Shown here one piece after another: positions 9,552 through 55,288 of a DNA stretch of 64,000 nucleotides (the first letter of the stretch is position 1; each line of letters opens with the position of its first letter). The position numbers and the translations under genes were made by a program. The notes below the pieces were generated by a model. It was not told where the DNA came from, did not search any database, and was given only the letters and a program-made list of their open reading frames with translations. The DNA is from Paramacrobiotus metropolitanus (lineage: Eukaryota; Tardigrada; Eutardigrada; Parachela; Macrobiotidae): the NCBI RefSeq assembly GCF_019649055.1, contig NW_026570228.1:186001-250000 (forward strand), written 5' to 3'.

Positions 9552-12008
<2,457 letters not shown>

Positions 12009-29215: not shown

Positions 29216-29219
29216 CTGT
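29216..29219. repeat. Target-site duplication CTGT (left)
   Basis: CTGT directly precedes the TG of the left LTR and is repeated directly after the CA of the right LTR. A 4-bp duplication is within the range made by gypsy-type integrases. Confidence 0.85.
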
Positions 29220-29600
29220 TGTCAGATATGACACAGAAGCAGATGGAAAATGGGGCAAATAGCCTTTATTGTGAAACAATAAAGCAACCACAAACAAACA
29301 CAGAAAAAGCCAATGCGGCATATGCTGTGGAAAGTAGCTGCCAGCGAGCTCGTAAGAATCGTGATAATGATTCGGCGTGCTGCAGGTATGCAACAGCTGA
29401 TGTCGTAAAGCATAGAATCGCTCGTAAACGCTGGGCTACGCCCCCAAGAGTGCAGAAATACGCTGATTGGTCAGCGTAGACAAAGTATACGCTGAGTGAG
29501 CAGCGTAATAGCGCGGCACGAATGGAGTAGCCATGTGCGGGCGGGCGACAGAGCAAAGCCACAAGAGGTGTCTACCGCCTCGAGTGTGCGGTCTCTGACA
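29220..29600 (-). repeat. 3' LTR (left copy)
   Basis: 381 bp, starting TGTCAG and ending CTGACA. Reading along both copies I found no difference from the right LTR. On the element's strand it has a CCAAT box (29466-29470 on the other strand as ATTGG), several CAGCGTAT-type repeats and an AATAAA polyadenylation signal at 29270-29265, about 46 bp before the LTR end. The adjacent polypurine tract is poor: only AGAGG and a few purines precede the LTR on the minus strand. Confidence 0.93.
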
Positions 29601-30765
29601 TGCCTCTGGGCGGGAGTGGGAGCTCCTGCGAGCACCTTCCGACTCTGCCCCTGGCCAACCCGGTAGGGTGCCAGGATCCGATACCCGGTAGGGCCGGATG
29701 CCACTTTGTCTCTAAACCCGTTAGGGTCGGTTGCTCCAGACCCGCGGTGCAGTGCACCGAACGGCCGAAATCTGGAGTGCACTCTGGTTGCAGGGGGTTC
29801 AAGTGTGGTTTGAAGGCTTGGTTTGGTCGAACAGTTAAAATAATAAAGTTTATAAGGCTCATTGGTTAAACATCGAAATAGAAAAATCACAATTTCGGTG
29901 AGAATTTAAGAAAGTAAGATCATAGTTAGAGATCCCAAAGCCAATTCCTTTGGTTATTTGGCTAAATAAAAACATCAATTTCTTTGGTTAATAAAGTCTA
30001 GAAAAACCAGGTTTGGTTAAAAAACTAGACGAAAAATGGCTTATTCCGACTAGGTTTACCACAGGGCAGATTCTGTCCACACGGGTCCTAGTCAACGGTC
30101 CGCTTTATCCGATAGGATTGGTCTGGTCCTGTAGATCCGGGGCGACGGTTCCCAGAGATGTCCACAGGGATCCAGTAAAGTAAATCCAGCGGTGCGGTAT
30201 ATGGAAGGCACGGTTGCATGCGCAAGGACAAGTTGTCCCCTTCCTTGTTAAAGTATGGTGGACCAAGCCCGGTTGGGCGGTCCATGATGGGCCAAAGTGA
30301 TGCCTCTGGACAGGAGAGGTGCTCTTGTGACCAAATTAGTGTGCTTGGACCGATTCCGTTAGGATGGCCATGCTTTGGTCTGACATGCCTCTGTTGGACC
30401 TGACCCGTTAGGGTTGTCCCTGGTGTGGCGGGAGTGGGAGTCCTGTCGGATTCCTTCCCAGTGGCCAAAATTGGTGCTTTGGACCAGTCCCGTTAAGGTG
30501 GTCCATTTTGGTCGGGTTTGGCCCTTCATGCCGGTTTGGTCATGCACCTCGGGCCAAAAATCTTCTAAGTCCAGGAGGGCCATAATGGAAAAATTTTCTA
30601 AGTCCCAGGACCGAAGTGGTATAGAGGACCAAACCCGTTAGGGCGGTCCAAACTCGGTTTTGACATGCCTTGGGCGGGATCCTAGGTTCCATTGTAATGG
30701 GGCTTACCTCTGGCAGGTGTTGGACACGGAAGTCCGATGTGGCCAGGTTTTGGCTCTCCGATGTG

Positions 30766-30985
30766 GACTTAGTCGTTTTTTGATGAGCCACATCGTTGGA
30801 CGGGCCAAAAGACTTAGTCTTTTTCGACGGTCCAAAATTGGTGGCGGGCCAAATGGACTTAGTCGTTTTTTCGACGGTCCAAGGTTGATGGCGGGCCAAA
30901 TGGACTTAGTCGTTTTTTTGACGGTCCAAGGTTGATGGCGGGCCAAATGGACTTAGTCGTTTTTTCGACGGTCCAAAGTTACGGA
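30766..30985 (-). repeat. 45-47-bp tandem array, about 4.7 copies
   Basis: Units begin with GACTTAGTCGTTTTTT at 30766, 30811, 30856, 30903 and 30950, followed by CGACGGTCCAA and GGCGGGCCAAATG. The last two full units are nearly identical. Confidence 0.92.
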
Positions 30986-31365
30986 CTTGTTAGGTCTGGT
31001 CCGTCTCACTGGCCGTGGGCCATGAGTTAGCTACCATGTCCGATGAGTCAGATAGGCAATTTTCCTTGAGACCGTGGTTATAACAAAATTAAGTGGCTTC
31101 TGACGAAAACGTCAGGTTAGCCGGGCCAAACTCCAAAAAATTAAGTTGTGGGCGCCGGTAGGCGTTTTCCACAAAGGAGTCGGTCTGCTGACTAGAAGCA
31201 TCCTCATTTGGCCTCTGGGCGGTCCGTGGCGAGGATGTTGGACGTGGCATGCAAAGTGGGTGTACCACAACTTCTATGTGGCTCCCTTACTTACTTATCC
31301 TAGTTGCCTGGTATGGCAACTAAACTCGTGAGCCGCATATGGTCCGTTGGACACACAGCGGGCCT

Positions 31366-31510
31366 GGTCCAACTTCTATGGGCCAGGACTTGGCCTTGGC
31401 TTGTCGCAACTTCTATGCGGGCCAGGCTGATCCTTGGCTTGTCGCAACTTCTATGCGGGCCAGGATCGATCCACGGCTTGTCGCAACTTCTATGCGGGCC
31501 GTCGCCGCCT
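31366..31510 (-). repeat. 38-39-bp tandem array, about 3-4 copies
   Basis: GTCGCAACTTCTATGCGGGC recurs at 31403, 31441 and 31480, with a diverged copy at about 31366. Confidence 0.88.
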
Positions 31511-31814
31511 TCTGGGCGCTGGATCCTTTCCATGCCGGTGAACCAGGCCTTGCGCCAAGTTCGGTCCGGTGGACTCCGTCGGATGGTCTGGGATGGCCGA
31601 GCCAAATTCATGGTCCCAGCCGCTAAGCCTAAGCCTATCCGGGGAATCCGGTTAAGATCCAGGGATTAAGGTCCGGTGAGGTAGACGATACATGGCCGTA
31701 AGCCACGTTTGTTAGGCGAGGGTAACAACCGTTGGATTGTACCCATGGTGTTCAAGTCTGGTTCAGCCGATGTCGGTCCATTTCTAGGGCCGACATGCAG
31801 GAATGGCCGTTGGC

Positions 31815-33755
31815 CTAATCCTGCCCTTCTTGTCCAGCTTGGTCGCCGTCGCCCAACCCTGGGTTGAGTGGGTCAACGACGCTTTCCTCCATGTCCGCCA
31901 ATTCCTGTTCAGTAAGGTTATGTTGATGTTGGCTGGAGGTGCTGGTCGGCTGGACTTCTGGGCCAGACTGTTCGGCCTGGGTCTGGACGTGTGCGGACGA
32001 TCCTGTTGAGGATCGTTGAGTGCGAAACTTCGTTGGAAGTTTCCGCGCTGCCGTTCGATTAACGAACGCTTCCGCTCCGTCGTCGAAGTCCGTTGGATGT
32101 CGATAACGGTAGTCTTTGGCGCGGCTCCTGAAAACGTTCAGGGCACTCTGGATTTTGACTCCCGCTTCGATTTCATGGACTTGGTTTCCAAGGAGAGCCA
32201 CCTGAGTCAGTAATCGAGGGATGATCTTCCCTTGCCGGTAGGCAACTTCAAGGTCCCAGTGGCACCGTAGGTGTCCCAGTCTGGCGGCAAAGATGCGTAT
32301 CATCGTGCCGTTGTACGAGTAAGTGTACGTCCCTGGGGCCTCCTTGTGATCGGCCGGCTTGCATGGGATTTCCATGGCGGCTCGTGAGGCTGCGACTATA
32401 AAGCTGGCGTTTGCGTCCGGTAGGACAAACTGGGCCAGGTATTTGACGACATCGAGTTGGTCGTCCTTTATGTGCAGTTGGCCCAAGTCGTTCCAGTCCG
32501 GTCGGGTGATAAGCTGTCCAAGTAAGTTCACGTCCGTGATGCTCGATAGAGCATTGTCGCGGACCATTGGATAGCCCTCGCGGTTTTCGGTGTGTTCCGC
32601 CATGCTGAAAGCACGGGGCCACTCCTTTTTCTGCATCTCCATTTCGAGGCCGGACCGGATGACGAAGGTTTGCAAGTTCTGGACCATGGCGTTAAGTTGG
32701 GCCCATCGCTCCCTAGGGTATGGGATAGCGCCCATGATGTAGTCCGTCACCTCCCGATGGGGACGTGGCCGGATATTGATGCCCTGGTCCTCAGCATGTT
32801 TATATGGGTCAAAGTCCGTGGCACTGACGCTTGCGTCTTATCGGGCCGGTGGGTCCGATGACGGCGGTGCGGACTCCGTATCCATTGGGAACTGGATGCT
32901 AATGTTGTGGGCCACCGAGCTGACACTTCGTTCTGGTCGCTTGGTAGACTGAGCGACAACCAAGTTGGACTCTGCCTCGCTCCGTTTTCCGGGTGATGTG
33001 CGCGTTTGGCGCTCCTCGGGCTGGCTACGGCGGCCCGTTTGGTCCTGGTTGCGGCTCTGTATCTGGTGACGTAAGTCATCTGGGTTTCGCGGTAGCGGTG
33101 CCACTGGCGCATACTGTTCGGTACGCGCTGGCGGATACTGTCCTTTCAGGGCGTCCAACAATCCACCTTCCATCAGCTGCTTGGCCACCTGGTCAACCAT
33201 GGCTTTGTTGATGTTTTCCAGGATCTGGTTATATGCCGTCGGTGTGGGCATCTCATATCCGTAGGATCGAGAGCCTGACGATGGCCGCCGCTGATGTCCA
33301 TATGTTTTCGGGGCGGCCGTTGGGCCGCGCCCTGAGGACTGGTCAGAACCCGTGTTACGGGCTCGGCGTTCCCGGTCTCGTTGCTCTTTCCGTTCTCGAG
33401 CCGATTGGCTGAGTGGAGGAATCTGAGTTCCGGTGCTGCTCCAGCCAGGTTGTCGGTTGCCACTGCGTTGCATATAGAGATCGTAGATCTCTATCTGCTC
33501 ATGGTCCCTCAGTAGGGGAAACAGGTGGCTTCCATCTTGGCTGGTCATGTGGCAGTATGCATCAAAGTTGCCTCTCACCACTTCCAAGTAGAAGCAGTAG
33601 GCTCTATCACTCTCGTCGCGGAAGCCCGGCCGCAGATGATATGCGCAAGGGAACAATTCCCGTGGGGCGTTGTCCCGGCGGTTTAAATGGTCTCCGCTGT
33701 TGCGCCTGCAGTCCGAACATCGCGGTTCATACTTCTGCTGTGGTGTAAGTCCCAT
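31815..33755 (-). CDS. Retroelement accessory block 2 (about 646 codons, one in-frame stop)
   Basis: One frame runs from the ATG at 33755 to the stop at 31815, with a single TAA at 32838-32840. The codons after this TAA (starting DASVSATDFDPYK) look as protein-like as those before it. The N-terminal part has a CSDCRR and further Cys/His (CAYH, AYCHM) that could bind zinc. A Ser/Arg/Gln-rich linker follows, then a compact domain with LLGQLITRPDWNDLGQLHI. That line resembles GLLVRTHRDWNNMMELHV in block 1 (34838-36103), so the two blocks share a domain. The C-terminus is acidic and Gln-rich. There is no membrane segment, so this is not an envelope protein. I do not recognise a family. Confidence 0.6.
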
Positions 33756-33945
33756 TCTCTGTGGTAACAGAAATGAAACTTGCAGAATGAGGTTAAGTCC
33801 ACTTTCTATGACGAGTCCCTATGATAATTACGCCCTATATTTTACGTCCCTATGATTTTAAGTGTGATTTGTTAACTAGGCTTTCCTTGCCCGGTGAATT
33901 ATATCGGGTTCACCCCCTAGACCCTATGCGAATTCTACGCCTAGG
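33756..33945 (-). other. AT-rich spacer between accessory blocks
   Basis: About 190 bp with stops in all minus-strand frames and lower GC than the coding blocks on both sides. It may be an intron or an intercistronic spacer. Confidence 0.55.
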
Positions 33946-34741
33946 TCACTGATGGTAAGTACGCCGCTTCTTCTTGGACTTGGTTGAGGCCAAGGAGGCG
34001 GGTCCGGTGGGACGAGGGCCGTATCGGTCTGGTGGGTTATTCTTCATCCGGTACCGCTGCTGGGCTTCTGGCTCGTCAACAGTTTGCTCGAGCCAGCCTT
34101 CGCGCAGCATCTTTTTGACGATGTATCGCACGTCCTCGCTGAGGTAGTACAACCCGTTGCGGCGACTAGGGGGATATTCATTCCCGTCACTCAGCTGAGG
34201 ATCGTACGTCGAAAGTTGTACGTCGTATCGTCCAAGGAGTTGATTGGCCATTTCGCCTCTTGTCAGGCCCAAGGGATGTTGCGTGGTGGTCAGTACCGCC
34301 AAGATGGCATTCCGCCATTCCCAGTAGCCTTGAGGCGCATCGTCACGTCTTTCCGGTGGGAACGTGTAGAACATCTGCATGTTGGGCAGATGGGTTCGAA
34401 GGATGGCTCCTTCTTCATAGGCCGTTCTAATGTATTTCATCACCTTGGACTTGGTGACTGGTGGGCCATTCCATTTCTGGATAAGTTGGAATGCCAAGCC
34501 TCCTGTAGCAAGGGTTGTACCCGTTTGGGACAACACCTTTAAGGCTGCCTTAATATATGCCCACGTCTCGTCCGTATTGGAGATCTTCGGCTTCTTTGAT
34601 GGATCTCCGCCGTACCCATTTCCTCGCCACATTGGTCCTTGGTGGCGGCACATAGTCTATGCGCGGTTTGGCCGGGCATGGGTCGGGTAAAGTCCACTGA
34701 ATCTCACCGTTATTCGATTCTAGTGAGGTGGAGTCTCGCAC
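33946..34741 (-). CDS. Accessory block 1, C-terminal part with two winged-helix-like modules
   Basis: The frame ending at 33946 (open from 34653) encodes two helical modules. The first runs from about TWAYIKAALKVLSQTG to YEEGAILRTHLP. The second runs from NAILAVLTTTQHPLGLTRGE to IVKKMLREGWLEQTV. Each ends in a helix followed by a 'wing'-like polar turn, the pattern of winged-helix DNA-binding domains. The tail is basic (KSKKKRRTYHQ). The preceding coding sequence (34741-34550, ...NVARKWVRRRSIKEAEDL) is in another frame, so a frame change lies near 34.56-34.62 kb. The winged-helix assignment is inference from pattern only. Confidence 0.5.
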
Positions 34742-37033
34742 TCTGTCCCGTTCGGGCTGTGCACCGCTTCCACTTGGCTCAGCGTCTCCTACGCTGGCCT
34801 GACTTTCCCGATCGGCGCCTTCTGCGCTACTTTGATCCTAACTGGCGCCTTCTGCGCCGCCCTGGTCCTCCATGTCCTGGTCACCGTTAGGTGGCTGATT
34901 TTCATCACCAGGTGGGATTTCCATGTCGTGGTCCGGTGCGACGTCAATGGTAAGTTTACCAGGGCTCTGATCATCATCGTCGTCCGAGTCGGACTTTTGG
35001 GATTCCATAGTTTGGTCCTGGTCCGGCTCTTCTTGTTGTTCCTCCTCCGAGTCCTCCGGTTCGGAGTCCTCAGAGTCCGATACGTCTCGGCCCGGTGGTG
35101 GTGGGCCCTTCCTCCCGCTCCTTTTTCCAGCCATGGCCTTTGTGGCCGTGGTCTTTCGACTCTTAGTTGATGTGGCTGATGGAGTCGGTGAAGGAGGTCT
35201 GGACTGGCCAGCTGCGTTAGGCAGTGACACAGTGTCCCTTGGCACGGGTCGGATTCCGGCCGCGCGCATTTCATCTTCGGCTTCTTGCCGTGCAGCCTTC
35301 TCCCTTCTAGTGACCGATGGTCGAGGAGGCTTTTCGACCGGCAAGTTCTTTGGACCTGGCAGTTTGGCCTCTTGGGAGATTAAGTAAGCCTCCTTGGCTC
35401 TGCCGGTCAGCTTGTCCTTCGGCGGTCCAACCGCTTTCTTTCTGTCCGGATCCCATTCTGTGTCAACGTCGTGTGACACGTACAGAGACCGTTGGGTCTT
35501 CTGTGGGATGAATCCCGGGATGGTGAAGCGAATTGGTTCCGCCCTGTGTGCGTTGGTCGTTTCTAGGGTTCCTTCCCTAACCAGCGCAATTAGCTCATCG
35601 GCCAGTCTGGTAATGAGTTTATCCAGGTTCTCTTCTCCCTGGTAATAGAGGGCATTGAGTGTCCTGGCGATATCGGTCAGGTTGGACCCTCTTGGGTTGT
35701 GCAGGTAAGCGATGGTCCTGCATATCTGATGGAAAGGAAAGTCCCTGCTACGGGAAAGTCCTGCTGGCCGATGGGCCACATGTAATTCCATCATATTGTT
35801 CCAATCGCGGTGTGTGCGAACCAAAAGTCCCATGTCCGGAATCCGAGATACCATCCGCCGCATAAAGGGTGCCGTTAGTACACGGTCCGCCGGCGGTAGG
35901 CCTTGGTATTCTTCCTTATACTTCATACGGGACCGGAGGACGCAGACGAGGCATTGGTACATGTCTCGTCCTGTTGCGCGCCTCATAGCCCTGGCGGCTG
36001 CCACGGTTAATCGCACATAGTGATCCGCTGGGACCTCTATGTGTGTGGCCTCCGGTCCAGGATCCGGTAGCTCGGCCTCATCGTCCCAGGGCGAGGGAAG
36101 CATGACTTCTTCTGAGGGCGGTTCTGTCCCGAAGCGTGGTTCATACTCCTCGTCCCGCCGTGAGCGATTTAGTGCGGGCTCTGCGGGTTTGTCTGGACTG
36201 TCCGATAGGACTTGGACATCTTCATCGCCTGACAGCCGCTTTTCAAGCTAGGCGATTTTGGCCTCTTGACTTTTCTTGTCCTTGGCCGCTTGCTTCTTTT
36301 GGCGGTTCCTTTCGGCCTCTGGATCAGATGTTGGCCGAGGTTTGGCCGCCTGGCTTCCACTCGGTTGAGGGGAGTTTGGACGAGTGGTCAGTTTGGCCCT
36401 CGGTTGAAGAGAAGTTGGACGAGAGGCCGGTCTGGCCCTCTCTGGGTTTTTGGCTTTTCTCGGCTGCTTATTCCGTTGGGAATTAACTGAGTGGATCACT
36501 CCCATGCCAAGTGCCAAGGCGTCCAATGTCCCGGTTACGGGGAAGGTTACTGGACGGCCAAAAGGTATGTCGTCGACACTGGCGGGCATGTTCGTCAATA
36601 TTGTCGGAGCAGCGGCCGTTGGCCCTGTTCCGGACTGGCTTTGGCCTGCCGATTCTTGTGCCGACAAAGTGGCCTTCGGTGGCTCCTCCTGTTGGACCGG
36701 TTTTGGCTGTGGCTCTACGGCCACAGGTCCGGACGGAGAAGTATCCATTGGCTCTGAAGCCGCTGGTGCCTGCGTTTTTGGCGGTACAACAATCAGTGGG
36801 GCACTTGACAACAGGGCTTCAGTCATCATTGGGTCTTGCTCCGGTGGGGGAAAGGCCCTTTGATTGCGACGGGTCCGGTAATCTTTTACCGTTCGGTAAA
36901 TTAATGGCGCGAGCATCTCGGATAACATGTCATATTCTTCCATGTTATTCTGCTCCTTCGCCTCCTGCCTCTTTGTTAGCAGAAATCGATATCGCCGTCG
37001 CTCGTTTTGGTCTGCATGGATGTATAGGTGTCT
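34742..37033 (-). CDS. Accessory block 1, middle part (two in-frame TAG stops)
   Basis: One frame stays protein-like from the TAG at 37034 down to about 34.6 kb, crossing TAGs at 36248-36250 and 34838-34840. In order it has a basic helical start (NERRRYRFLLTKRQEAKEQ), a Pro/Ala/Ser/Gln linker and a folded region with PADHYVRLTVAAARAMRR. GLLVRTHRDWNNMMELHV, shared with block 2, comes next. A winged-helix-like module (SNLTDIARTLNALYYQ...ELIALVREGTLE) follows, then a Lys/Pro-rich linker and a strongly acidic tail (DSEDSEPEDSEEEQQEEPDQ). There are no membrane segments. Role unknown; the shared DWN-LH domain and acidic and basic stretches suggest a nucleic-acid or chromatin partner, which is inference. 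Confidence 0.55.
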
Positions 37034-39116
37034 CTACTCGGTAGGAGTGAGAGCACTCATGGGCATCAGGGCCGTGTCAAGTTCCACTTCTTGGTCCGAG
37101 ACGGCCGGAGTTATCTGCACCGTCATTCTGGCCGATTCTGTGACCACTGGTGCAGGAGTTCTGACCGTGACCGTTACTGGCTCCAGTGATGAACCTGCAG
37201 ACACAGTAGGTGCTGCGATTCGTTCCACAGTAATGGTCATGGTTGGCTGCTGAGGAGGTGTGGTGTCCATCCTCTCTTTGGTCGGGGACTTGCCTGGCCG
37301 GCTCGGTGTGAACCTGGCGGGAGCCGGTTCGATGGCCGGCATGCTGGGCATTCGCGCCGGGGTTGATGTGGCGCGTCCAGGAGAAGTCCTTTTTGACGGC
37401 CTTCGTTGAAGGTGGCCGGACCTGACTGGTCTCATATAACGCCCTTTGGATATGTTCGTCTAAATCTTCTTCATTCTCCGACTCCTCGCTAAACGAGACG
37501 CCCCAGAAGGCCGCAGGCAGTTGAGGACGTTCGTCCTCGCTTTCTGCCTCTTCCGGTGGAAGTTCGTCTTCCACTGGCTGGCCTGGTCGTGGGCGCGGTT
37601 CAACTGTCCATGCCCTTGGATTAATATGTGGGCCTCGTATATAGATGGCGTGCTCAATAATTTCGCTAGGCAACTTGCGTTGGCGAAGGGCCTGGCTTTT
37701 GCTCCGCATGGCCATCAGTTTTCTGATGAGGATTGTCCGTTCTTTGACCATCAATTGACAACCTCGGCTGATGCGGTCAATCTCACGGTCCGTTAGTGCT
37801 GGATCGCCGGCGCGTAGTCGTTGGCGCATGTCCTCCTCAGTCAGATTTAAGCGTAGGTCAACTTCTATGATCTCGCTTACAGCCCTGTTATGCGGGTCAT
37901 CCCATGACTCCGTTTGAGTCAATCGAATGCGATGCCTCGTGGAGGTTCGTCCCGCAATGGCTGAGTTATTCCTGACGGAATTGCTGGTGCTTCCGGTGGG
38001 GAAAGCACGTGTCCCTTGCCAGGAAAGTTCTTCGGCGGCGACTTCTTCTTCTTGGCCGGTAGGCCACGAAGCGTCAAAGTCGGTGGTTCCGCCTTCTTCG
38101 GTTTGAGTATGGACGGGCCAGGCCTGGGAGGGCCGGGAACGTCTAAGTCCTTTGGCAGACCACTCCACGCTGGTAGAGTGGGCCTAGTTGGACGGTTAAG
38201 TTCCAGGTTTTCACGCGGTCCTCTCCAAGGTGGGAGTGACCGCTGCGAAGGAGGCTCCTCGGCTTCTGGGGGAGTCCTCTTCTTCTTTTTGAACCTGGGC
38301 GACTGTGGACCGCTTGTTGTGGCAGGAGCGGCTGGTTCTGGCCTTCCTCCTGTGGATTTCCTGTCCGTTGGTCGAACAACAAGGGTGCCACCAGATGTGT
38401 CGCCTTCGATTGGTTTCGGGGTGGGCGGTGATGACACCGTTGGTGCATCAACAGCCATTGGACTTGTCGGTTCATCAGCCGGTTGGACTGGTGTCGACTC
38501 CAATTCGACCGGCTTTTCCGGCGAAAGGTCGAAGGTTTTATCAGGCAGGCTCACGTCCATTTCGACGTCCTGCGGTGGAATTTCTATGCTGCTGTTCGGT
38601 GTAGCAGCTCCAGCAGTGTCCACAGTTTGGCTTGATGTTGGACCAGGCACCGTTAGGGCCTGGGCCAAATCAGCTGGAATTGGCTGTCCAACTGATGTTG
38701 AGGCGGCCGGTTCGTATGTCAGGGCCAAAAGTGCTGGCGCAGACACTGGTGATGGTCGCCATTCATTTACTGGGTCGAAGTCCTTGGGGCGTGCCGTCGT
38801 TGACGGGCCAGGTCGTTGGACCTTCCAGTAATCTTTGATAAATTCTCGGATCCATCTTGTGGTGTAGTCCAAAACAGTTAACGATTGGCCGGTAGGCATC
38901 GTACTGTTCGGAGTGAGTTCCTTGAGCAGAACCAACTGTTGGGTAGGGCTCTGTTGCTGTTCTGTCAGCCTGACCGCTTCTGGGTCGAATGGGCTGAGAT
39001 CTTGGATCCGGTTAGTTCGGCGACGATCGATGTCCTCGGCATCTCTAATAAGGTTCTATTTCTCATAGCCTGAGGATCGTCATCCTAATGGGTCCGGTGT
39101 CAGCATCGCGCAACCG
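37034..39116 (-). CDS. Accessory block 1, second part (several frame changes)
   Basis: The coding signal moves between frames. A frame open to 37919 (from about 39.03 kb; NLIRDAEDIDRRRTNRIQDL, then Pro/Thr/Ser-rich sequence, then PKKKRTPPE and AKKKKSPPK basic clusters) gives way to another frame. That frame runs from about 37.93 to 37.40 kb (VDLRLNLTEEDMRQRLRAGD, EIDRISRGCQLMVKERTILI, acidic ESEDERPQLP). The signal then returns to the first frame down to the TAG at 37034. Each switch replaces one clean, biased amino-acid composition by another without overlap of good sequence, so these look like single-base indels or recoding sites. Two lysine-rich clusters could be nuclear localisation signals. 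Function unknown. Confidence 0.5.
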
Positions 39117-41511: not shown

Positions 41512-41725
41512 GCGGTGTTAGACTCCTACCTACTTGATTAATACGGCTAGCTACTTCTAAGCTACCATGTCGAGTATCGGGCCAGATTAAGCTACTTCTA
41601 AGCTACTGGTCATTTAGGGTTAGGTTAGTTGATTTTTAGGTTAGTTAGTTTCGATAGCAGATCACGGTAGCGATCGTGGGACTTTAAGGTTAGTTAGACT
41701 AATTCTAAGTCTACCATGTCAGATA
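41512..41725 (-). other. Spacer between pol and the accessory block
   Basis: AT-rich, with repeats of GTTAGGTTAGTT and of AGCTACTTCTAAGCTAC. Two copies of CTACCATGTC (also seen next to the 5' LTR at 54.90 kb) lie at about 41.56 and 41.71 kb; the second is followed by AGATATTAT. This could be a leftover or an internal copy of the LTR junction sequence. Confidence 0.6.
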
Positions 41726-44428: not shown

Positions 44429-44530
44429 CGGTGTGGGCGTCAGTCCAGTCGTTTTTCACTGAACTTTCCTTCCGCAGGAGTTCATACATCTTGGAAGTCT
44501 TTTGGGCGTAGCCCTGGATGAACTTTCGGT
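44400..44530 (-). CDS. pol: End of the reverse transcriptase, cut off by the inserted DNA element
   Basis: After the inserted element the RT reading continues with the classic YRKFIQGYAQK...LYELL-like line (MYELLRKESSVKNDW) and ends NEIKRP at a TAA at 44400. Without the 1,310-bp insertion and its 3-bp duplication this would join in frame to the RT frame on the other side. The RNase H frame starts one frame away over the same bases (44428), so there is also a frame change here. Confidence 0.85.
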
Positions 44531-44533
44531 AAT
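44531..44533. repeat. Target-site duplication AAT (left end of the DNA element)
   Basis: AAT precedes the left terminal inverted repeat and also follows the right one at 45844-45846. The short length makes chance possible, but the uninterrupted RT sequence across the site supports it. Confidence 0.75.
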
Positions 44534-45843
44534 AGATTGTAGTCGCAAGTGAAAAAGACCTTACGATAGACGGTACGATATACGGTAGGCTCTTGCACGT
44601 CATCACGGCGTACCCTTATCGGACCGTTTGACGATAAGTAAGACGGTACGCGGCGATCCTATCGTATCGTTTCTGTGGGCGTAACGTTTGTCCCTGCGAA
44701 ACTGCAGCCGCCTTCGGCGATATGTACGTGAATGTGCGTTCTGCTCGATCCAACGAAATCAAGAATTCTGATTGGTTGTTTACAGATTCCCATACTTTGC
44801 TGTGTAATGTGAACAAAGCATTTTCTGATGAATTTTTGTGGAAGTTCTTTACTTCGTTGAAGCTCCTGCCAAAAGTTTTTTGTTTTTTCGCTGTATGTTC
44901 AAGAAAATCTGCTGAAATAGCAGCCTTCGAAAATATATTTTCGGTAATTAATTGTGTCTGTGAGGCCTTCGCAATGGATGCTGTTACTGGTGAATCAACT
45001 GCAGATATCCGTAATGTGCGATTTGTGGAATGTCGATTTTTGGCACTCTTGGATTTGATTAAACACTACAATCCGTACGTTTCCGCCAACAAAACTGCTG
45101 CATGGAAAGATGTTGTGCGTTCGCTTAATGAAACGAAGGTACTTACTACTTTGTAATTAAAGCCTTGAATGTCGTGACATGCAAGCGTTTATTTGTGTAG
45201 CACAGCGTGTAATGCTAACTTTACAACATCGTAGATTTTCGTGAAGCATGTTTCTGACAGAGGTGTGAAGGAGCGCTTTGCGAACCTGGTAGCCTGGTTC
45301 AAGGTGCAAGACCTGCGCAACAAAAGCCGTAGCGGAACAGAAGAACAGTACGGAAAAATGGAAGCTCTTCTCACAGAGTTGTGCGAGCTCATCAGAGGAT
45401 GTGAAGAAGCGGAGGCGGAGAAGAAGCGCGCAGCCACGGAAGCGCAGGAAGAACGCCAGGAGATATCGAAGGTTATGAAAGCTGCAGGTGAACACGGTCG
45501 CAACATTCCCACGGACGAAGAAGATCATCCTGTCTGTTTTTTTACGAGTCTTAACGCAGCAAACTGTTTTCTGTCTATTCTTCTTGTCCTCAGTAAGTTA
45601 GCAATAATAAAAAATCGCATTTTATCTTCAGAACATTTACATGCGTTTGAACTGAAAAGCGTGTTGCAAAATCATTTAAAAACTACGATGGAGAAAAATA
45701 AAAACATCTTAACAGTTGATCTTATACCGTACGACCGCAGACGCCTGCGACTACACAAAGCACTTGCCGGTGCACTTCCGATGCGGTCGGCACTCACCGT
45801 ACATCGTCTACCGTCTATCGGAGCTTTATGGCGACTACAATCT
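44534..45843 (+). mobile_element. 1,310-bp DNA element inserted in the reverse transcriptase
   Basis: The ends are AGATTGTAGTCGC and its reverse complement (13 bp exact). The similarity then continues, with gaps, through GATAGACGGTA and ACGGT motifs for about 60 bp at both ends. It is flanked by AAT at 44531-44533 and 45844-45846, a 3-bp target duplication. It interrupts the RT between the residues ANY and YRKF. Three-base duplications occur in PIF/Harbinger and a few other DNA transposon groups, but no transposase is present. The only gene is a spliced SANT-like frame. The element is thus non-autonomous or incomplete. Confidence 0.85.
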
Positions 45844-45852
45844 AATAATTAG
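44722..45852 (+). CDS. SANT/Myb-like protein gene of the inserted DNA element (2 exons)
   Basis: Exon 1 is 44722-45138 (donor AAG|GTACTT) and exon 2 starts at 45235 (acceptor CATCGTAG); both are phase 0. The joined protein has a tryptophan-containing helical region (FLALLDLIKHYNPYVSA...TAAWKDVVRSLNE), continued across the intron by VSDRGVKERFANLVAWFKVQ and then a charged coiled helix (LCELIRGCEEAEAEKKRA). This is the layout of Myb/SANT- or MADF-like DNA-binding proteins carried by some DNA transposons. The frame stays open through the right terminal repeat and closes at a TAG in the flanking DNA (45850). The true C-terminus may use another intron or an earlier stop. Confidence 0.6.
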
Positions 45853-47800: not shown

Positions 47801-49467
47801 GTGGTTGGACGGCTCCCGTTAGGGAGTGGCGAGGCTGGTCGGCCTCCTGCCCAACGTTGGGCCGAACAAGTCTGTATGGCCCGTATTACCGCCTCAACGC
47901 CGTCTCCACAAAGAGGACAAGTCAGTTGGACTTCCTCCGATGAAGGGTCCTGTTTGTTCTGGCTGGTGTCCCTTCGATGGCCTCCCTGTTCCGGGTATGG
48001 GCCATCATTGAAGCGCACTTTTGTCGCTATATGCGGTGCTGCTTCTGGCAATGGTTCTGGTATGGTCCTAACGTTGGTCAGGCTCAAGTCATACTTTGGC
48101 CATATGCTGACGGTTAAGCCAGGATGTTGGGCCACTTGTCTTCAAAGTGTTATTATGTCATCGAAGAGATCCGTGCACATCTTTTGGAGTGCTTTCGGAG
48201 CTTCCATGTGGTACTCTCTGTATTCCCACACGAGGGCTAGACGTTCTTCCTCCCATAAAGCTCCTTCTTGGACCAAGTCGTCCAGTTCTTGGGCGAATGG
48301 TCCGTATTGTTCGGCAATTTGCGGCCACGTTAGTGGTTCGCCTTTTTCTTCAAGCCAGCTCTCTTCTAGAGCAAGGAGTTGGTTAACGCGGTATTCCAGG
48401 AAATTTCTTACTCCTGTAAACCAAGTTTTATAGCGCTGGACCAGGTTCTCCTTAATTTCTCTGTCAGGCACCGGCCGTTGGCCCGGTGCCTCTGGTATCG
48501 GGATAGTCTTTACTATCCCGTGATTTGGCTTGAGTATGCCTGCACGGAATTGGGTCATGTAACGCTCGATTGCATTATGGACGCGCAGCTCCCCTATGAG
48601 GCTTTCAATGGTGTCCAGGCATTGCCAGCAGGTAGAAGGAAAACTTTTCGGGTGATCAAGCCGATTAACTCTCACTTCATCCTCGGGTCCCGGTGCCTCT
48701 GGTATCGGGATTGACTTTACCGCGTCCCAAACGATTTCTTCGTTTGGCTTGAGAATAAACGTAAACTTGGACTGAAGATAGTCACAGCCAAGTAATACGT
48801 GCACGTCCGTTAACGTCGGTTGGACGAAGAACGTGTGGTGGCTCTTGTATCCTTGCAGTGTCACCGGTACGGTGCAGCAGTGGGAGACCACAAAGGCGGT
48901 TTGTCCGCCAACACCAAGGATTTTGGTGTTCCGTCCTAATGGCTCTGTTTAGATGCCATTGGCGGTGCAGAATTGCTGGCTGATGAGGGATGTCTCCGCT
49001 CCAGTGTCCAGCATAGCGAGCGTGTGGACTGGTCCAATTTGGACTTTGTGTGTCCATGCTCTAACGGTTTTTGGTTTACGATTTTCAGCGAGGCCAACTG
49101 TCACTTCCCGCATCACCGGTACAATGTGGATTAGCGACACTGGTCCTGGGTCATCAGGAGCATACTGGGGTGCTGAAGGCTCCTGTTGGACAGATTCTCC
49201 CTGCGGTGATGTTTCCGCTACCCGTAGGGTCGAAAACATATTTTTGGTGTTCAGGAAGGTCCGTGAGCTGTTGATGGTTCGCACCGTTGGTGTGGTGCCG
49301 AGGGGTCGTCCACCGGTCTGGGGCCAGCAGGTGCGGGGACTTGACGCCCCAAGAGGTTCGGCTGTCCACTCTTCTAGTGATCCGACCTCACTGTCCGTAT
49401 TTTCTACGGACCATCCTTCCGTTGCGCTGTCGGAGGATGTGTCTGACGCCGATTTAGGATACGTCAT
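47801..49467 (-). CDS. pro: Aspartic protease region with two in-frame stops
   Basis: One frame, starting from the ATG at 49467, carries the retropepsin signature LAMLDTGAETSLIS. It then hits a TAA at 48949-48951 and continues with ILGVGGQTAFVV and HVLLGCDYLQ, the second and third conserved retropepsin lines. The stop therefore sits in the middle of the enzyme. The same frame goes on for about 230 codons of unassigned helical sequence to a TGA at 48142-48144. Beyond it lies a segment with CPLCGDGVEAVIRAIQTC, a possible zinc site. As written the protease cannot fold without readthrough of the TAA. Confidence 0.82.
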
Positions 49468-49721
49468 GTTCGTGGTGCGACGTCTCGCTTTGCCACGTAG
49501 TCGGTTGGCCTTAAGGTTGGTTGAGGCTCCGAGTTTTGGTGATCGGTTGGCCTTAGGGTTAGTTGAGGCTCCGAAAATCGACTTGGTCGAACTGTACAGG
49601 GGTTATATCCGGCGGTTTAGGCTCCGGTATTAGGTCGGGTGAGTTGCCGATACTCCCCGACCTTAAGCGTTTCCCGCGGTTGGGCTGGCCCGGTTAGGGC
49701 CGCCGCCGTTGCCGTTTGGCT
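49468..49721 (-). other. Gag-protease junction with a 43-bp direct repeat
   Basis: Two copies of GGTTGGCCTTA(A/G)GGTT(G/A)GTTGAGGCTCCGA lie at about 49503 and 49546. The gag frame ends at a TGA at 49722 and the protease frame starts at 49467, one frame away. A programmed frameshift or readthrough may normally join them, but I see no classic slippery heptamer. Confidence 0.55.
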
Positions 49722-51202
49722 TCACCAGCTGGTCCGGTATGGGTGGTAGCGCTGGCCTTTCGTTGGCTGGCGTTTGGTATCCCTGTTTTGGACCGTTCTG
49801 GCGATTGCTGCCACCAGACCCATTTCCTGAGCCGGTGGACTGTCTTCGGCTGCCATTCCTCCACTACCACGTTGTGGTCTGGGTTGTTTGGGTGGCACTA
49901 AGCCGAAGCGGTTAGGGTTTGCTGACCCGGTAGGGTAGCCCTTTGTGTAACGGCTCCGCCAATCCAAGTACCACTTTCGGTTTGGATTTTCGCCGTATGG
50001 TCTGTTTGCATAGCCACAGCCTTCGGTTGTGTGGTTTCCCCACAGGCAGTGGCTGCAAGTGATTATTCCGTCTTTGGCCCATCGTTCGAACATGCGCTCG
50101 ACTCGGTCGGTGTACATTTCCTCTTGTTTGCGGGCCTGTTCGGGGGTTAATGTTTGACGTTGGCCGGTTTGGCCCTCGCCATTCCCCTGGCTTCGGTTTT
50201 TTCCTCCGTAGCCGCCTTGGCTTCCGGTGAAGCTGGCGTTTTGGCCTTTGGAGAAATTGCCTTTTGGTCCTCCACCGCCGTTGCCCTGGCTATAGCCAAA
50301 GTTGCCCTGGTTCCGGGCCTGGCCATAGCCACCACCACCGCCGTTTGGCGGTGTGGGCCCACGCTGTGGGGAGGCCAAGTTCAAAGCCGCGATAGCGGCG
50401 TATGCTGCCTTCATTTGGGCCTGTGTCGGCGTCAGCGTTTGCGGAGGGTAGAATGCCGGTTGTTGTGGTACGACTTGGGCCGGTGACGTTTGTGTGGCCA
50501 TACGGATGATTGATCCGCGGCCCGTCCTTACCTCGTACTCCGGCTTTCCCATGGTATATTGCCGGACATAGTCCCGGAATTCTGCCGGTGACTTCGGTAT
50601 CCGGATATCCAGAGCGCGGCGTAGTTCTAGCTCTTTCACATTCTCTCTCAAGAAGTGAAGGGTCATTGTGTCGTCCAAGCCGGCACGCGTCTGGAGTGTC
50701 AGCATGGCGTCGTAGTACTGCTCTGGGGTTTCGAACCCGTGTTGGTAACACCGGTGTGTGATTTCCCCCATGGCAGTGGCCTGCTGATTATCGTCGCCGT
50801 AGCGAGTGGCGAATTTCTGAAGCCACTGTTCCACTGTCCAGCCGTCTTCGTCTTCACGATTGGCCCTGATTATCGTCGCCGTAGCGAGTGGCGAATTTCG
50901 TACTGTTCCACAGCCGTCTTCGTCTTCACGATTGGCTTGGCCAGTGTACCATTCCTTTACAGGGTCCGACAGCTCATAAAGTCCGGATCTGGTTTATTCA
51001 GATCGGACGACTGCTTACAGATCCGTCGGACCTGAGCAAGCCATCCTTTCACCATTGTTTTGTTGCCGTCAAATTTTGGCAACGCGGTGCGGACTTGAGC
51101 TCTCGCATTTGCTTTTCCTATCTCCTGGGCCATCTCCTTAATTTGCTCTCGGGTTGTGAGAGCTGGGCTGGCCGGTGGTGACGGGGCAGGTGTTAGCTGC
51201 AA
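49722..51202 (-). CDS. gag: Gag capsid and nucleocapsid, interrupted by a tandem duplication
   Basis: The capsid starts in the frame 51202-50957 (LPKFDGNKTMVKGWLAQVRR, the usual retrotransposon gag entry) and continues in another frame from 50834 (EQWLQKFATRYGD...PEQYYDAMLTLQTRAG). Between them a stretch of about 75-85 bp (from ATTATCGTCGCC to CACGATTGGC) is present twice, at about 50786 and 50869, with small differences. It shifts the frame. After the capsid come a Gly/Asn-rich linker and one CCHC zinc knuckle, C260-x2-C263-x4-H268-x4-C273, for RNA binding. The frame ends at a TGA at 49722. Confidence 0.85.
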
Positions 51203-52050
51203 TTATATCTGCGGCACCTGCTGGGGTTGAGCCAACATTGGCTGTCCCGGTATTATCTGGATGGCCCCGTTGGACGCCATCCATCCGTATGCTTCGTTTG
51301 GGAGTTGGACCAGCATGGGCGCATTCTGGCCCAAGCCTGGTTGGGCTGCGGGTCCTAGTGGCGTGGCCGCTGTTGGCGGTACGCCTGGTGGTTGGGGCAC
51401 GCTTTGGCCCATGGGCACATTCTGGCCCGTCTGCGGCTGAGCTTGGCCCGTTTGGGCTGCCGCCGAGATGGGAGGGCCAAATAGGCTTAGTTGGCCTACC
51501 AATGGTTGTTGCACCGTTGGTGTACCACTTTGGCCTCCCATCTGTCCTTGTGTGGCCGGTGGTCCGAACATTGGGCTCAGCGGGTTGGTCCGGTTTGGAT
51601 CCACGCCGCTGGTATGAGCCTGGCTTGTGGCCGGATGTGGACTGAAGTTAAAGTCCATGTTCGGGAATATAGACGGATACAAGGACGGGTACAGTGGCCT
51701 TGACCCAAAGTGGCTGTGGCTGGGTATTGCCTGGCTTGGGTCAAAGCCTGGCCCGCTTGACGTAGACAGATAAGTCTGCGTTGCGGGTGTCACTATCGTC
51801 GTTGGACCAATAGTGATGGATGTGGTGACCGAGATCGGTGGTGGCGGCAGCGTTACTGTCGCCGTTGATGTTCCACGGTCCACTGGACTGGGAGGTGTCG
51901 GTATGGTTGGCCCCGTTGGGGGATGTCCAACCGATGGTCCTTCCACAGCCATGTTTACATGGTAGTTTTGCTGATGATACACTGGCTCGCGGTAGAAGCG
52001 TTGGCCCTGCCGCAGAGCCTCGTCGACTTTTCTTGTCGACGTTGTGTATC
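51203..52050 (-). CDS. gag: Gag, Pro/Gln/Thr-rich region
   Basis: Open from about 52.03 kb (VDEALRQGQRFYREP) to a TAA at 51203-51205. Directly behind the TAA the same frame carries the capsid start. Composition: Pro, Gln, Thr, Gly with repeated PPTGP, GQPQTGQ and QNAPM-like patterns. It is probably a flexible spacer between the coiled coil and the capsid, as p12-like regions are in other Gag proteins. Confidence 0.7.
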
Positions 52051-53174
52051 CGAGTCCGGAAAAGTGTGGTAGGACGGTGGTTCTGCGGACAACTCGGAGT
52101 TTAGGTCTACGAGATGTGATTTTTCCGCATCTAAGCAGGCGTTCTCCGTGCTTAGCTTTTCCAGGTCCTCGTTCAGCTCAGTTATACGTTGGGTGGCCGC
52201 CTGGTAGTCTTTGACAAGCCGGCATTAGTGGCCTCCAATGTGATGATCCGGTCATGCTAGCCCTGGATCACCTGTTTGGCTTGTGCGAAGGCCTGCTCCA
52301 ATTGGACAAAGTTTTGATGTCCAATGGCGCTGTTTTGCTCAAGTTGGACCCGAATGGTTGATTCGGTCTTGAGCTGGCTCTGGAGGGCAACGATCTGTTG
52401 CTGGAGTTGCACGTTCTGTGCCTCCTTTTGTTGAACCGTTTGGCTCAACAGTCCTCCTTGTTGAATCGTCTTCATGAGATTTTGGTGGCTCTCATAAAGA
52501 AGATTATATCCGTTCCGCAGGCGGTTGATTTCGTCCTGCAGATTGGACATGTCGTCGGTAAGACGCTCATTTTCATTCAAGAGGCGGTCCGCCTCTGAAT
52601 CGGTTTCGTCAATGGTGGTCCGGGCCGCAGTCAGGTCATCCCTGGCTTTGGCTAGCTCAGTCCACGTGGAGGTGAGCAAGGCTTCGAGTCCCGCCACTGC
52701 CATTTCTAGGCTGTGGATTGTCCTGTTGAACTGGTCTCGCTCAGCATTGGGACATGGTGACAACTTGAGCTGAGTCAGCTCAAGTTGGGTCTGGGCCAGT
52801 ATGGCCGAGACACGTTTAGCCTCTACGTCCGATTTGGACGCAAGGTCTTTATGTTTGCAGATCTCGTCCTGCATCCAACGTTCGGATGACAGGGCTGCTT
52901 CTGCTATGTCCGCCAGCAGTTTGGTCAGGTCCCGTACTGTGGTCCGGAGTTGGTCGACTTCGTCGATCTCCTCGGGCCGGGTTGCCTGGATCAGCTTTGG
53001 CGGGCTGACGTTGGCGCTGTTTGTGTACCAGGTGGGCTGATTCAGGTCCATCCTGGCTGTGGCCCTGTTAAGTTGGGCCAGGTCCACAATTGGCTCTCGG
53101 TCCTGTTTGGACTGGCCAGGCGCGCCGGTGACGTCATTGGTTGGCGATGGCGTTGCTTGTGTTGAGCCATCGAC
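52051..53174 (-). CDS. gag: Gag, long coiled coil
   Basis: A 276-codon frame to the TAG at 52257, entered from upstream in the same frame, with heptad-like helices over nearly its whole length (QLRTTVRDLTKLLADIAEAA, RLTDDMSNLQDEINRLRNGY, QLQQQIVALQSQLKTE). Helical sequence goes on past the TAG and, after a frame change near 52.2 kb, as KDYQAATQRITELNEDLEKL. Long coiled coils in Gag occur in spumavirus-like and some giant elements, where they drive assembly. No other domain is seen. Confidence 0.75.
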
Positions 53175-53890
53175 TTAAAACATGATTGGCGACTGACTCA
53201 CGGGCTGTTGGCCCTGGTCATGTGCCTTTGGACCAGCCTTTTTGGCTTGGCACTTTGCCTTGCGTCCACCTTTAGCCACCGTTGGTGCCTCAGGTCGGAT
53301 CTGGTCCAAGCCCGGTAGGGTTGGACTTGTTGTCAGATCCTGGACGTCAAGGTTGGACCGGGCCAAGTTGTTTGGCCCTGGTCCATCGGTGCGTGTCTTG
53401 TCCTCACTTGTGGCCGCCGTTGGCGCCTCAAGTTGGACTTGGCCCGAGCCAGGTATGGCCGGTTGTTGTGCCAAGTCCTGAGGGACACTGTTGGCCTGGG
53501 CCCGTTTATCGGCGCCAGGTTGGCTGTCCTGAAGCTGGTTGGCCTCGGACAACCGGTCGGACGCTTCCAGGAATGTGTCGTCCCGGGTGGCGTCCAGACT
53601 TTCGTCGCTTGTCTCCAGGTCGGCCGGCAGGATTTGGTTGTCCCGCTTGGCTCTGCCTCGACCGAACTCGTAGAGCCGGCCGAGTTTGGCTCGTCCGGGT
53701 CAGAACTGGTTGGCCTGGCGCTACGAAGCCCGTAAGGCCCCGTTGGTTCGCGCAGGGCGTAGTTCTTCCCGCGAGGCTTGGCATAATCGTTTTGCTGGCG
53801 CCTGTCCATAGGACTGAGCAATCTCCGTTGGAGTTGCTCATGGCTGGTGTAAGGCATCACCTTGGCCAAGGCGCTTTGAGTTTGGCCCAT
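53175..53890 (-). CDS. gag: Gag N-terminus with a myristoylation-like signal
   Basis: The first ATG after the leader that opens a coding-like frame is at 53890. It gives MGQTQSALAKVMPY, with Gly2 and Ser6, the rule for N-myristoylation, as at the N-terminus of retroviral matrix proteins. The coding signal leaves this frame near 53.64 kb. It continues in another (DLETSDESLDATRD..., then Gln/Ala-rich sequence and a basic KGGRKAKCQAKKAG) down to a TAA at 53175-53177. Myristoylated Gag in a non-enveloped-type element would be unusual; the call rests on the short motif only. Confidence 0.6.
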
Positions 53891-54888
53891 GGTATTGGGA
53901 CTTAGAGAATTTCTTTGGTCTTGGTCCGGACCGGAACGTTGGGTTAGATCGCTGTCGGTGCTGGTCAGGTACGCTAGAGCTCAGGTTTAGCGTTAGCTTC
54001 CTATGGCCCTATGTTACGTTACTCACCAGCGTGACGTCAGTTACAAAATGGTCTTGCAATTAGCTCTACGTCACGAGTAGCGTGCCGTGAGCAAAATTCA
54101 AAAAATAATATGAGTCACTACGACTGTTATAACACGGGGACGTTTTCCACGTGTTCTGATTGGTTAGAATTTTATGGAAAGTTACCACACTGACGTCACG
54201 CGACTTTTTTGCGAAAATTCCGGCTGGACAAAATGGCGGTTGTTTTTCGCCGAAAATTCAGTAAAAATCAGGAAAAATTTTCTCGAGAGTTCTGTTACAC
54301 AATTCTAGTGCAGAATTCTACGAGGAATCCGAAAAAGCTATTTTTATAAGCGGTTCAAAAGTTATAGAATTTTGAAGTGTGGTTCTACGCGGAAACCTCG
54401 AAATTTTCGAAAGTTCTACGAAAACCTACGACGCCACAGCAGGTCTTACCGGTCGTTTTTCGATTCAGACAATGCTGCTCCGTCGTTCCACTTCACCCTC
54501 TTCTTCCGTGAGGGCCGCAGCGCACCCGATAGGGCGTTATGTGTGACAGAACCGTACCAAACGCAGTTTTTGCGCCGGGAGCCAAAGCTGCGGGGGACCT
54601 ACTTATAGGCACCGACCCGTATCAACGCAACCCGGTAGGGCGTTTATTTGGTCAACAGGATCGTACCCAACACAGTTTTTGTGCGGGGAGCCAAAGCTGC
54701 GGGAGGCTTACTTATAAGCCTGACCCGTATGATTATTCCGTCGCGCTGCAGGTTTCCACTGAAACCTGTATGATGCAGGAGACAGATGAAGGTCGCGGGT
54801 TGGCTGGCCTACTTACAGGCGATCAGCGTAGTTCGACCGAGATGATGCCTTCACTGGAAGATCAGAGGTTCGCAGGAAGGAAAACCGA
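53891..54888 (-). other. 5' leader of the retroelement
   Basis: About 1 kb between the primer binding site and the gag start. It holds a two-copy tandem repeat at 54.52-54.74 kb and two CRE-like sites (TGACGTCA, about 54032-54039 and 54192-54199). Stops occur in all frames. It probably carries packaging signals and perhaps internal promoter elements. Confidence 0.55.
54520..54738 (-). repeat. Two-copy tandem repeat in the leader, about 108 bp each
   Basis: Both copies contain ACCCG(A/G)TAGGGCG, CCAA(A/C)(C)ACAGTTTTTG-type sequence, GGGAGCCAAAGCTGCGGG and (A/G)CTTACTTATA, with the second copy starting near 54628. They differ by point changes and small indels. Confidence 0.85.
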
Positions 54889-54903
54889 GCGATACTGCTA
54901 CCA
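54886..54903 (-). promoter_or_regulatory. Primer binding site
   Basis: Directly next to the 5' LTR the element's strand reads TGGTAGCAGTATCGC. TGG pairs with the universal CCA end of tRNAs, and TGGTAGCAG is complementary to the 3' end of eukaryotic initiator methionine tRNAs. The match beyond nine bases depends on this host's tRNA, which I cannot see. Confidence 0.75.
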
Positions 54904-55284
54904 TGTCAGATATGACACAGAAGCAGATGGAAAATGGGGCAAATAGCCTTTATTGTGAAACAATAAAGCAACCACAAACAAACACAGAAAAAGCCAATGC
55001 GGCATATGCTGTGGAAAGTAGCTGCCAGCGAGCTCGTAAGAATCGTGATAATGATTCGGCGTGCTGCAGGTATGCAACAGCTGATGTCGTAAAGCATAGA
55101 ATCGCTCGTAAACGCTGGGCTACGCCCCCAAGAGTGCAGAAATACGCTGATTGGTCAGCGTAGACAAAGTATACGCTGAGTGAGCAGCGTAATAGCGCGG
55201 CACGAATGGAGTAGCCATGTGCGGGCGGGCGACAGAGCAAAGCCACAAGAGGTGTCTACCGCCTCGAGTGTGCGGTCTCTGACA
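54904..55284 (-). repeat. 5' LTR (right copy)
   Basis: 381 bp, which I read as identical to the left LTR, with the same TGTCAG/CTGACA ends, CCAAT box and AATAAA signal. It would drive transcription leftwards. Confidence 0.93.
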
Positions 55285-55288
55285 CTGT
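55285..55288. repeat. Target-site duplication CTGT (right)
   Basis: Matches the CTGT before the left LTR. Confidence 0.85.

What the first reader, a model, noticed from the sequence alone, without database searches (positions are those of the whole stretch)
29220..55284. A 26-kb gypsy-type LTR retrotransposon with a long non-envelope coding block behind pol
Complete boundaries (identical-looking 381-bp LTRs, TG...CA ends, CTGT duplication, primer binding site) enclose gag-pro-pol plus about 9.5 kb of extra coding sequence. Most of the extra sequence is one quasi-continuous frame of about 2,500 codons, followed by a second of about 650. Giant gypsy elements are known in plants (Ogre) and flatworms (Burro). 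The extra block here has no membrane segment and no family I recognise, so it may represent a new lineage or new cargo.
Basis: partly seen in the sequence, partly recalled or inferred. Interest (0 to 1): 0.9.

Follow-up and report, generated by a model that had tools for sequence, protein, structure and literature searches.

The report
Giant tardigrade retrotransposon with orphan genes
A tardigrade genome carries a family of unusually long "copy-and-paste" elements (about 25,000 bases) that, besides the usual virus-like genes, keep two big extra genes of unknown ancestry under selection, which gives a new animal case for asking what such giant mobile elements need extra genes for.

Summary
Window 29220-55284 is a minus-strand Ty3/gypsy LTR element: 381-bp LTRs identical at 381 of 381 positions, CTGT duplication, conserved PBS-like site, gag-pro-RT-RNaseH-IN, then 9.7 kb of sense-strand coding sequence. 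A 1,308-bp inverted-repeat insert splits RT from RNaseH; the element proper is about 24.75 kb.

The extra block is not a nested insertion. It is two genes, ORF-A (about 2,550 codons) and ORF-B (about 670), found in dozens of copies with dN/dS 0.20-0.21 and 0.09-0.19. Divergent relatives (33-47% identity) lie downstream of divergent integrases on the same strand (31 of 60, capped lists; controls 0 of 60). Pol-A-B is thus an old lineage-wide order. A word-limited search of 5.8 billion proteins found no ORF-B match; ORF-A's C-terminal part matched one, also P. metropolitanus.

ORF-B starts 3 nt behind a conserved splice-acceptor-like block. ORF-A's C-terminus is weakly winged-helix-like. Best guess: nuclear nucleic-acid-binding accessory proteins made from subgenomic RNAs, serving the huge genomic RNA. 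Function is untested. New lineage of a known kind (giant gypsy elements).

The parts
54904..55284 (-). 5' LTR (element orientation), 381 bp
   Evidence: identical to the other LTR; 40 matches in the genome among 40 scored, own two included
29220..29600 (-). 3' LTR, 381 bp
29216..29219 (.). target-site duplication CTGT (the other copy is at 55285-55288)
54886..54903 (-). primer-binding-site-like sequence TGGTAGCAGTATCGCTCG; tRNA not identified
   Evidence: first 14 nt identical in 5 of 5 five-prime ends; tRNA pattern search unanswered, an earlier pattern had 0 matches
49725..53890 (-). gag (broken here): myristoylation-like start MGQT.S (motif recalled), coiled-coil-like part, one CX2CX4HX4C knuckle
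   Evidence: read from L045 and window
48145..49602 (-). protease region of pol
   Evidence: LDTGAE; weak RVP hits in the window, PF13975 E 1.1e-7 in L045
45845..47818 (-). reverse transcriptase (YIDD)
   Evidence: PF00078 E 1.9e-25
44535..45842 (.). nested 1,308-bp insert with 12-bp TIRs and TAATA duplication; not part of the element proper
41729..44455 (-). RNase H and integrase with AT-hook-like tail (RGPGRPRKAKP; motif recalled)
33949..41517 (-). ORF-A: about 2,550 codons in intact copies; Pro-rich, mostly disordered-looking; two conserved C-terminal blocks; broken here by indels, five of them private deletions
35462..36052 (-). ORF-A conserved block 1 (helical in a low-confidence model, fold unresolved)
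34000..34611 (-). ORF-A conserved block 2 (winged-helix-like in a low-confidence model)
33759..33788 (-). conserved 3' splice-site-like block ending CAG, 3 nt before the ORF-B ATG
   Evidence: CAG in 18 of 19 aligned copies, CGG in 1; 28-nt invariant run
31818..33755 (-). ORF-B: 653-676 codons as read in other copies; one in-frame stop here; no homologue found outside this genome
29601..31817 (-). 3' non-coding stretch with tandem repeats (47 bp x 4.6; 39 bp x 3.4)

Best explanation
This is a copy of a giant Ty3/gypsy (Metaviridae-type) LTR retrotransposon lineage of the tardigrade Paramacrobiotus metropolitanus, organised LTR-gag-pro-RT-RNaseH-IN-ORF-A-ORF-B-LTR and about 24.75 kb long without its nested insert (shown; the species by inference). 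ORF-A and ORF-B are genuine element genes kept by purifying selection and present in old subfamilies (shown). Most likely they are made from subgenomic mRNAs, ORF-B from a spliced one using the conserved acceptor-like block at 33759-33788 (inferred). Most likely they act in the nucleus as nucleic-acid-binding accessory proteins, ORF-A as a mostly disordered scaffold with C-terminal winged-helix-like DNA/RNA-binding domains, helping export, packaging or chromatin delivery of a roughly 24-kb genomic RNA, in the manner of retroviral regulatory proteins or CERV of Cer1 (inferred, untested). Identity of the element: about 0.95. This function: about 0.35.
Confidence: 0.5

Rival explanations
1. ORF-A and ORF-B are structural: extra capsid-associated or tegument-like proteins that let particles hold a 24-kb RNA.
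For: Large size, Pro-rich composition; selection; genome length near the top of what is reported for LTR elements in PMC6431247 (passages).
Against: No clear similarity of ORF-A or ORF-B to this element's gag (best E 0.11 over 33 residues for ORF-A, none for ORF-B at E <= 1); ORF-A block 2 looks helix-turn-helix-like rather than capsid-like, weakly.
Confidence: 0.2
2. ORF-A and/or ORF-B replace an envelope and allow cell-to-cell spread.
For: Position behind pol, where env sits in retroviruses (recalled); Gag begins with a myristoylation-like motif (motif recalled); the divergent ORF-A protein P0009 has one stretch at 1.77.
Against: No 19-residue segment reaches 1.6 in P0001, P0003 or P0002. 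The hydrophobic short sense ORFs found (30 codons or more, score 1.7 or more) lie in the LTRs or in the nested insert.
Confidence: 0.05
3. ORF-A and ORF-B are captured host genes carried as passive cargo.
For: Retroelements can capture sequence (PMC6431247 passages); the homologue searches were word-limited, so an unsampled host origin is possible.
Against: Selection and deep conservation of order argue against passive cargo. The one homologue found by the protein search, P0009, is a P. metropolitanus protein, and divergent ORF-A rows form tens of copies.
Confidence: 0.1
4. The block is a nested insertion or an assembly artefact.
For: This copy's frames are broken, and one real nested insert exists between RT and RNaseH.
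Against: The same block occurs in the same place in dozens of copies on many contigs, some with open frames.
Confidence: 0.01

Closest known systems
Burro giant gypsy elements of planarians (as reviewed in PMC6431247; passages read)
   Same: Animal gypsy-like LTR element, internal region of up to 25 kb, extra coding capacity of uncertain role.
   Different: Burro is described with extra domains inside one giant ORF1 polyprotein (MATH/TRAF, BIR, BCL2-like, Env-like, dUTPase-like). Here the extra genes are separate ORFs behind pol, and Pfam scans of ORF-A, ORF-B, gag and the pol pieces showed none of those domains (E limits 0.01 to 10). LTRs here are 381 bp; the review gives Burro more than 30 kb in total with LTRs.
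Ogre elements of plants (PMC6431247 passages)
   Same: Giant gypsy elements with extra ORFs of unknown function.
   Different: Ogre is reported with an 11-13 kb internal region and long LTRs (1.9-6.5 kb); here the internal region is about 24 kb and the LTRs are 0.38 kb.
Retand lineage of plants (PMC11963269, abstract and list of sections read)
   Same: Long pol-to-3'LTR region with additional ORFs, one domain (TRP28) thought to bind DNA, tandem repeats.
   Different: Retand's extra ORFs are antisense and the region is 2.9-6.6 kb; here they are sense and the region is about 12 kb.
Cer1 of C. elegans with CERV (PMC10309623, abstract and list of sections read)
   Same: An LTR retrotransposon of an animal with an accessory protein encoded by a spliced mRNA; a model for what ORF-A or ORF-B might do (nuclear export of genomic RNA).
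   Different: No sequence link was tested; Cer1's size and CERV's sequence were not compared here.

Membership tests
Ty3/gypsy LTR retrotransposon (Metaviridae type) | LTRs with TG...CA, short target-site duplication | tested here: met
Ty3/gypsy LTR retrotransposon (Metaviridae type) | domain order protease-RT-RNaseH-integrase | tested here: met
   protease, PF00078, PF17917/PF17919, PF17921, PF00665 in that order
Ty3/gypsy LTR retrotransposon (Metaviridae type) | tRNA primer-binding site next to the 5' LTR | tested here: inconclusive
   conserved TGG-starting site; tRNA not identified (negative for one pattern; the later pattern did not complete)
Ty3/gypsy LTR retrotransposon (Metaviridae type) | polypurine tract before the 3' LTR | tested here: inconclusive
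   upstream 40 nt identical in 4 of 4 three-prime ends read (L010 = window, L011, L013, L016), but only a short purine run (CAGAGGCA)
Burro-type giant gypsy | extra domains within one ORF1 polyprotein together with gag and pol | tested here: not met
   extra ORFs lie behind pol as separate frames; gag (P0004) shows no such domains at E <= 10
Endogenous retrovirus / errantivirus | envelope gene with membrane segment behind pol | tested here: not met
   none in P0001, P0003, P0002; the divergent relative P0009 has one stretch at 1.77
Linker-histone / winged-helix family (for ORF-A) | significant profile or fold match | tested here: inconclusive

The most novel reading that the evidence does not exclude
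A tardigrade retroelement lineage has solved the 'size limit' of LTR elements by evolving a dedicated pair of nuclear proteins. One is a 2,500-3,300-residue disordered scaffold ending in tandem winged-helix domains, with no homologue found outside the lineage. The other is an orphan protein expressed by splicing. Together they form a new class of retroelement regulatory system.
Probability: 0.2. Interest if true: 0.8.

Novelty: new variant of a known kind. Interest (0 to 1): 0.6.

Why it matters
Giant gypsy elements in animals are few among the papers I saw, and their extra genes are unexplained. Here a whole lineage with many copies, several deep subfamilies and some open frames, in a 170-Mb tardigrade genome, keeps the same two orphan genes. 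This makes the questions 'what do extra genes do for an LTR element' and 'how are 24-kb genomic RNAs expressed and packaged' testable with long RNA reads and ordinary protein assays.

Tried and rejected
Rejected: nested-insertion origin of the extra block. Envelope reading, mainly. Linker-histone assignment of ORF-A block 1: Pfam E 0.054-0.25, with an unrelated family scoring 0.033. ORF0 as a separate gene: in the window it reads on into gag across the place where L045 breaks, so it looks like the N-terminus of Gag. Window frame breaks as mere sequencing noise: five frame-breaking deletions of 7-23 bp are shared by 0 of the 17-20 covering copies, and 3 of 11 frame-breaking differences to L027 (2 of 12 to L034) lie in homopolymers of 3 or more; some of the 1-bp ones may still be noise. 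A leader splice donor at the window's GGTGAGTAA: not kept in L045. ORF-A internal repeats: none by self-BLAST of P0001 and P0009.

Led nowhere: ORF-B against 5.8 billion proteins, none of 7,393 candidates at E <= 0.001. Solved-structure profile searches. AlphaFold of two blocks, low confidence. Foldseek, 0 at E <= 0.001. A tRNA pattern guessed for initiator Met, 0 matches. One search's ORF-B numbers are invalid because my slice was out of frame; they are not used. Its ORF-A numbers dropped codons in poorly aligned windows, which lowers dN. The D-D-35-E pattern returned nothing, so no DDE claim is made. One ORF-A list (26 rows) was picked by contig and held one mistyped row that could not count; one search repeats that test with the longer lists and gives the same 15 of 23.

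Rows used: one search took 50 of 59 integrase rows (one per place), 71 of 150 rows, 69 of 151 and 70 of 124 (the closer ones, fragments of one copy dropped), and had no control. One search took 60 of 108 rows, 74 of 150, 71 of 151 and 23 of 124 (the divergent ones). One search used 8 of the 10 long ORF-B frames (the other two failed my position filter). Searches aligned 18 of 20 stretches plus the window; L028 and L033 lacked the start motif that I searched for.

Literature: the listings showed no paper whose title or abstract start describes a giant gypsy element in a tardigrade. The passages of PMC11071193 found for gypsy/LTR/Ty3 mention Gypsy only as a superfamily in two other tardigrades. 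The passages of PMC11191345 hold no word beginning with 'transpos' or 'retro'. The library holds open-licence papers only.
Full report
What was checked. The two LTRs (29220-29600, 54904-55284) are 381 bp, identical at all 381 positions, start TG and end CA, and are flanked by CTGT on both sides. The element lies on the minus strand. GC is 0.538 inside against 0.420 in the rest of the window. RT, RNaseH and integrase are clear in the window. The protease is split and weak in the window and clear in copy L045 (PF13975 E 1.1e-7). Gag of L045 has one CX2CX4HX4C knuckle. A 1,308-bp insert with 12-bp inverted ends and a TAATA duplication sits between RT and RNaseH, so the element without it measures 24,752 bp.

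Which genome. Two relatives annotated as Paramacrobiotus metropolitanus lie on a contig of 4,484,719 bases, and contig C1 of the window's genome has exactly that length (table). The genome has 169.8 Mb in 533 contigs. A GPCR-like frame in the flank fits an animal. The identification is an inference, but a strong one.

Copies. The LTR gives 40 matches at 90-100%, own two included (40 of 236 candidates scored). Seven other same-strand pairs on one contig span 22.4-28.8 kb, four of them 24.8-25.1 kb (coordinates, lengths). A 1.4-kb piece of the extra block gives 40 matches at 80-100%, own copy included (40 of 74 scored). These are lower bounds.

The extra block is two genes. Of 20 stretches of up to 10 kb from other copies, 3 keep one open frame of 2,542-2,559 codons (ORF-A) and 10 keep a second frame of 653-676 codons as read (ORF-B), five of which run to the end of the stretch. 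The rest are broken to various degrees. Pairwise dN/dS is 0.200-0.210 for ORF-A (3 of 3 pairs) and 0.089-0.191 for ORF-B (28 of 28 pairs of 8 copies). The window's broken ORF-A pieces still give 0.176-0.200, after codons in poorly aligned windows were dropped, which lowers dN; this suggests that its breaks are recent. Five frame-breaking deletions of 7-23 bp are shared by 0 of the 17-20 copies that cover them. How a copy with identical LTRs came to hold so many private breaks is not explained; mobilisation in trans of an already broken copy, or LTR conversion, are possibilities.

Deep conservation. ORF-B's second half gives 124 rows, some of them pieces of one copy, down to 33-37% identity, with open frames up to 897 codons (119 of 493 candidates scored). 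The two ORF-A blocks give 150 rows (150 of 388 scored) and 151 rows (150 of 298 scored), with open frames up to 3,302 codons; 14 of the 150 rows lie in frames of at least 2,400. Of 50 integrase places, 32 have both ORF-A blocks and ORF-B downstream on the same strand, 36 have at least one, and 14 have none within the distances I set, six of these 14 having parts nearer than the limits (no control was run there). With a divergent integrase (P0012, 50% identical to the window's), 31 of 60 places have A and/or B downstream; the same test gives 0 of 60 on the opposite strand and 0 of 60 upstream. Of 23 divergent ORF-B places, 15 have ORF-A 2.0-3.7 kb upstream on the same strand; upstream opposite, downstream same and downstream opposite give 0 of 23 each. 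The lists are capped, so absences mean little.

Relatives elsewhere. ORF-B: none of 7,393 candidates at E <= 0.001 in a word-limited search of about 5.8 billion proteins. ORF-A residues 1900-2558: one protein of 7,708 candidates, LOC129594469 of P. metropolitanus, 36% identical in the best alignment. RNaseH-integrase: the best four hits are P. metropolitanus (45-50%), the next is Cryptotermes at 29%. In a tree of 61 integrase rows (the window and 60 of the 80 hits; those with short or no match dropped) the window and the four P. metropolitanus rows form one clade at 100/100 on a stem of 1.49. Named reference lineages were not available, so the place within gypsy is open.

Expression. In 19 aligned copies (the window and 18 of 20 stretches), the 30 nt that end 3 nt before the ORF-B start hold a 28-nt invariant run and end in CAG in 18 of 19 (CGG in one). 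This looks like a 3' splice site. Most of the rest of the gap is less conserved (0.92-0.97 per 30 columns), but one other 30-column block is nearly as conserved (0.996). A donor was not established. ORF-A is preceded by a conserved but less acceptor-like stretch in the 12 sequences aligned.

Mechanism proposed. The full-length RNA serves as genome and gag-pol message; ORF-A and ORF-B come from shorter RNAs; both act in the nucleus on nucleic acid, helping so long a genome to be exported, packaged or delivered. Shown: genes, selection, order, absence of membrane segments in the copies read. Inferred: splicing, nuclear role, nucleic-acid binding. The closest functional model, CERV of Cer1 (PMC10309623, abstract and list of sections read), is an analogy only.

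Known kinds. Giant gypsy elements are known in planarians (Burro) and plants (Ogre) (PMC6431247, passages read), and long pol-to-LTR regions in Retand (PMC11963269, abstract and list of sections read). This lineage differs in host, in 381-bp LTRs, and in two separate sense-strand orphan genes behind pol. I saw no description of it in the listings of seven literature searches.

Noticed in passing
window 53333-53890 (minus): Gag begins MGQT.S, a myristoylation-like start such as retroviral Gag proteins have (recalled); seen in the window and L045.
   Followed up: partly
window 33949-41517: Identical LTRs but five private frame-breaking deletions of 7-23 bp in ORF-A; the age given by the LTRs and the decay do not fit easily.
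   Followed up: partly
window 44535-45842: TIR insert with TAATA duplication and a plus-strand frame of about 200 codons; family not identified.
   Followed up: partly
window 42167-42199 (integrase tail) and P0010, P0012, P0013: AT-hook-like motif (recalled) in the integrase tail of the four proteins looked at (GRPRK in three, GRKRK in one).
   Followed up: no
window 54524-54730: 109-bp tandem duplication (1.9 copies) in the 5' leader.
   Followed up: no
window 15401-16414 and similar frames at 2644-19153: One 7tm_1 GPCR frame and several frames of about 310-337 codons nearby, three of which had no Pfam match at E 0.01; possibly a receptor cluster.
   Followed up: no
window 10604-10763: Perfect ATT microsatellite of 53 units.
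   Followed up: no
G000, RVT_1 rows: RT hits within open frames of up to 3,610 codons (e.g. C13, C76, C78), apparently other giant frames not studied here.
   Followed up: no
gap before ORF-B in 19 copies: A second nearly invariant 30-nt block (ATTCACCGGGCAAGGAAAGCCTAGTTAACA in the window) about 120 nt upstream of the acceptor-like block, role unknown.
   Followed up: no
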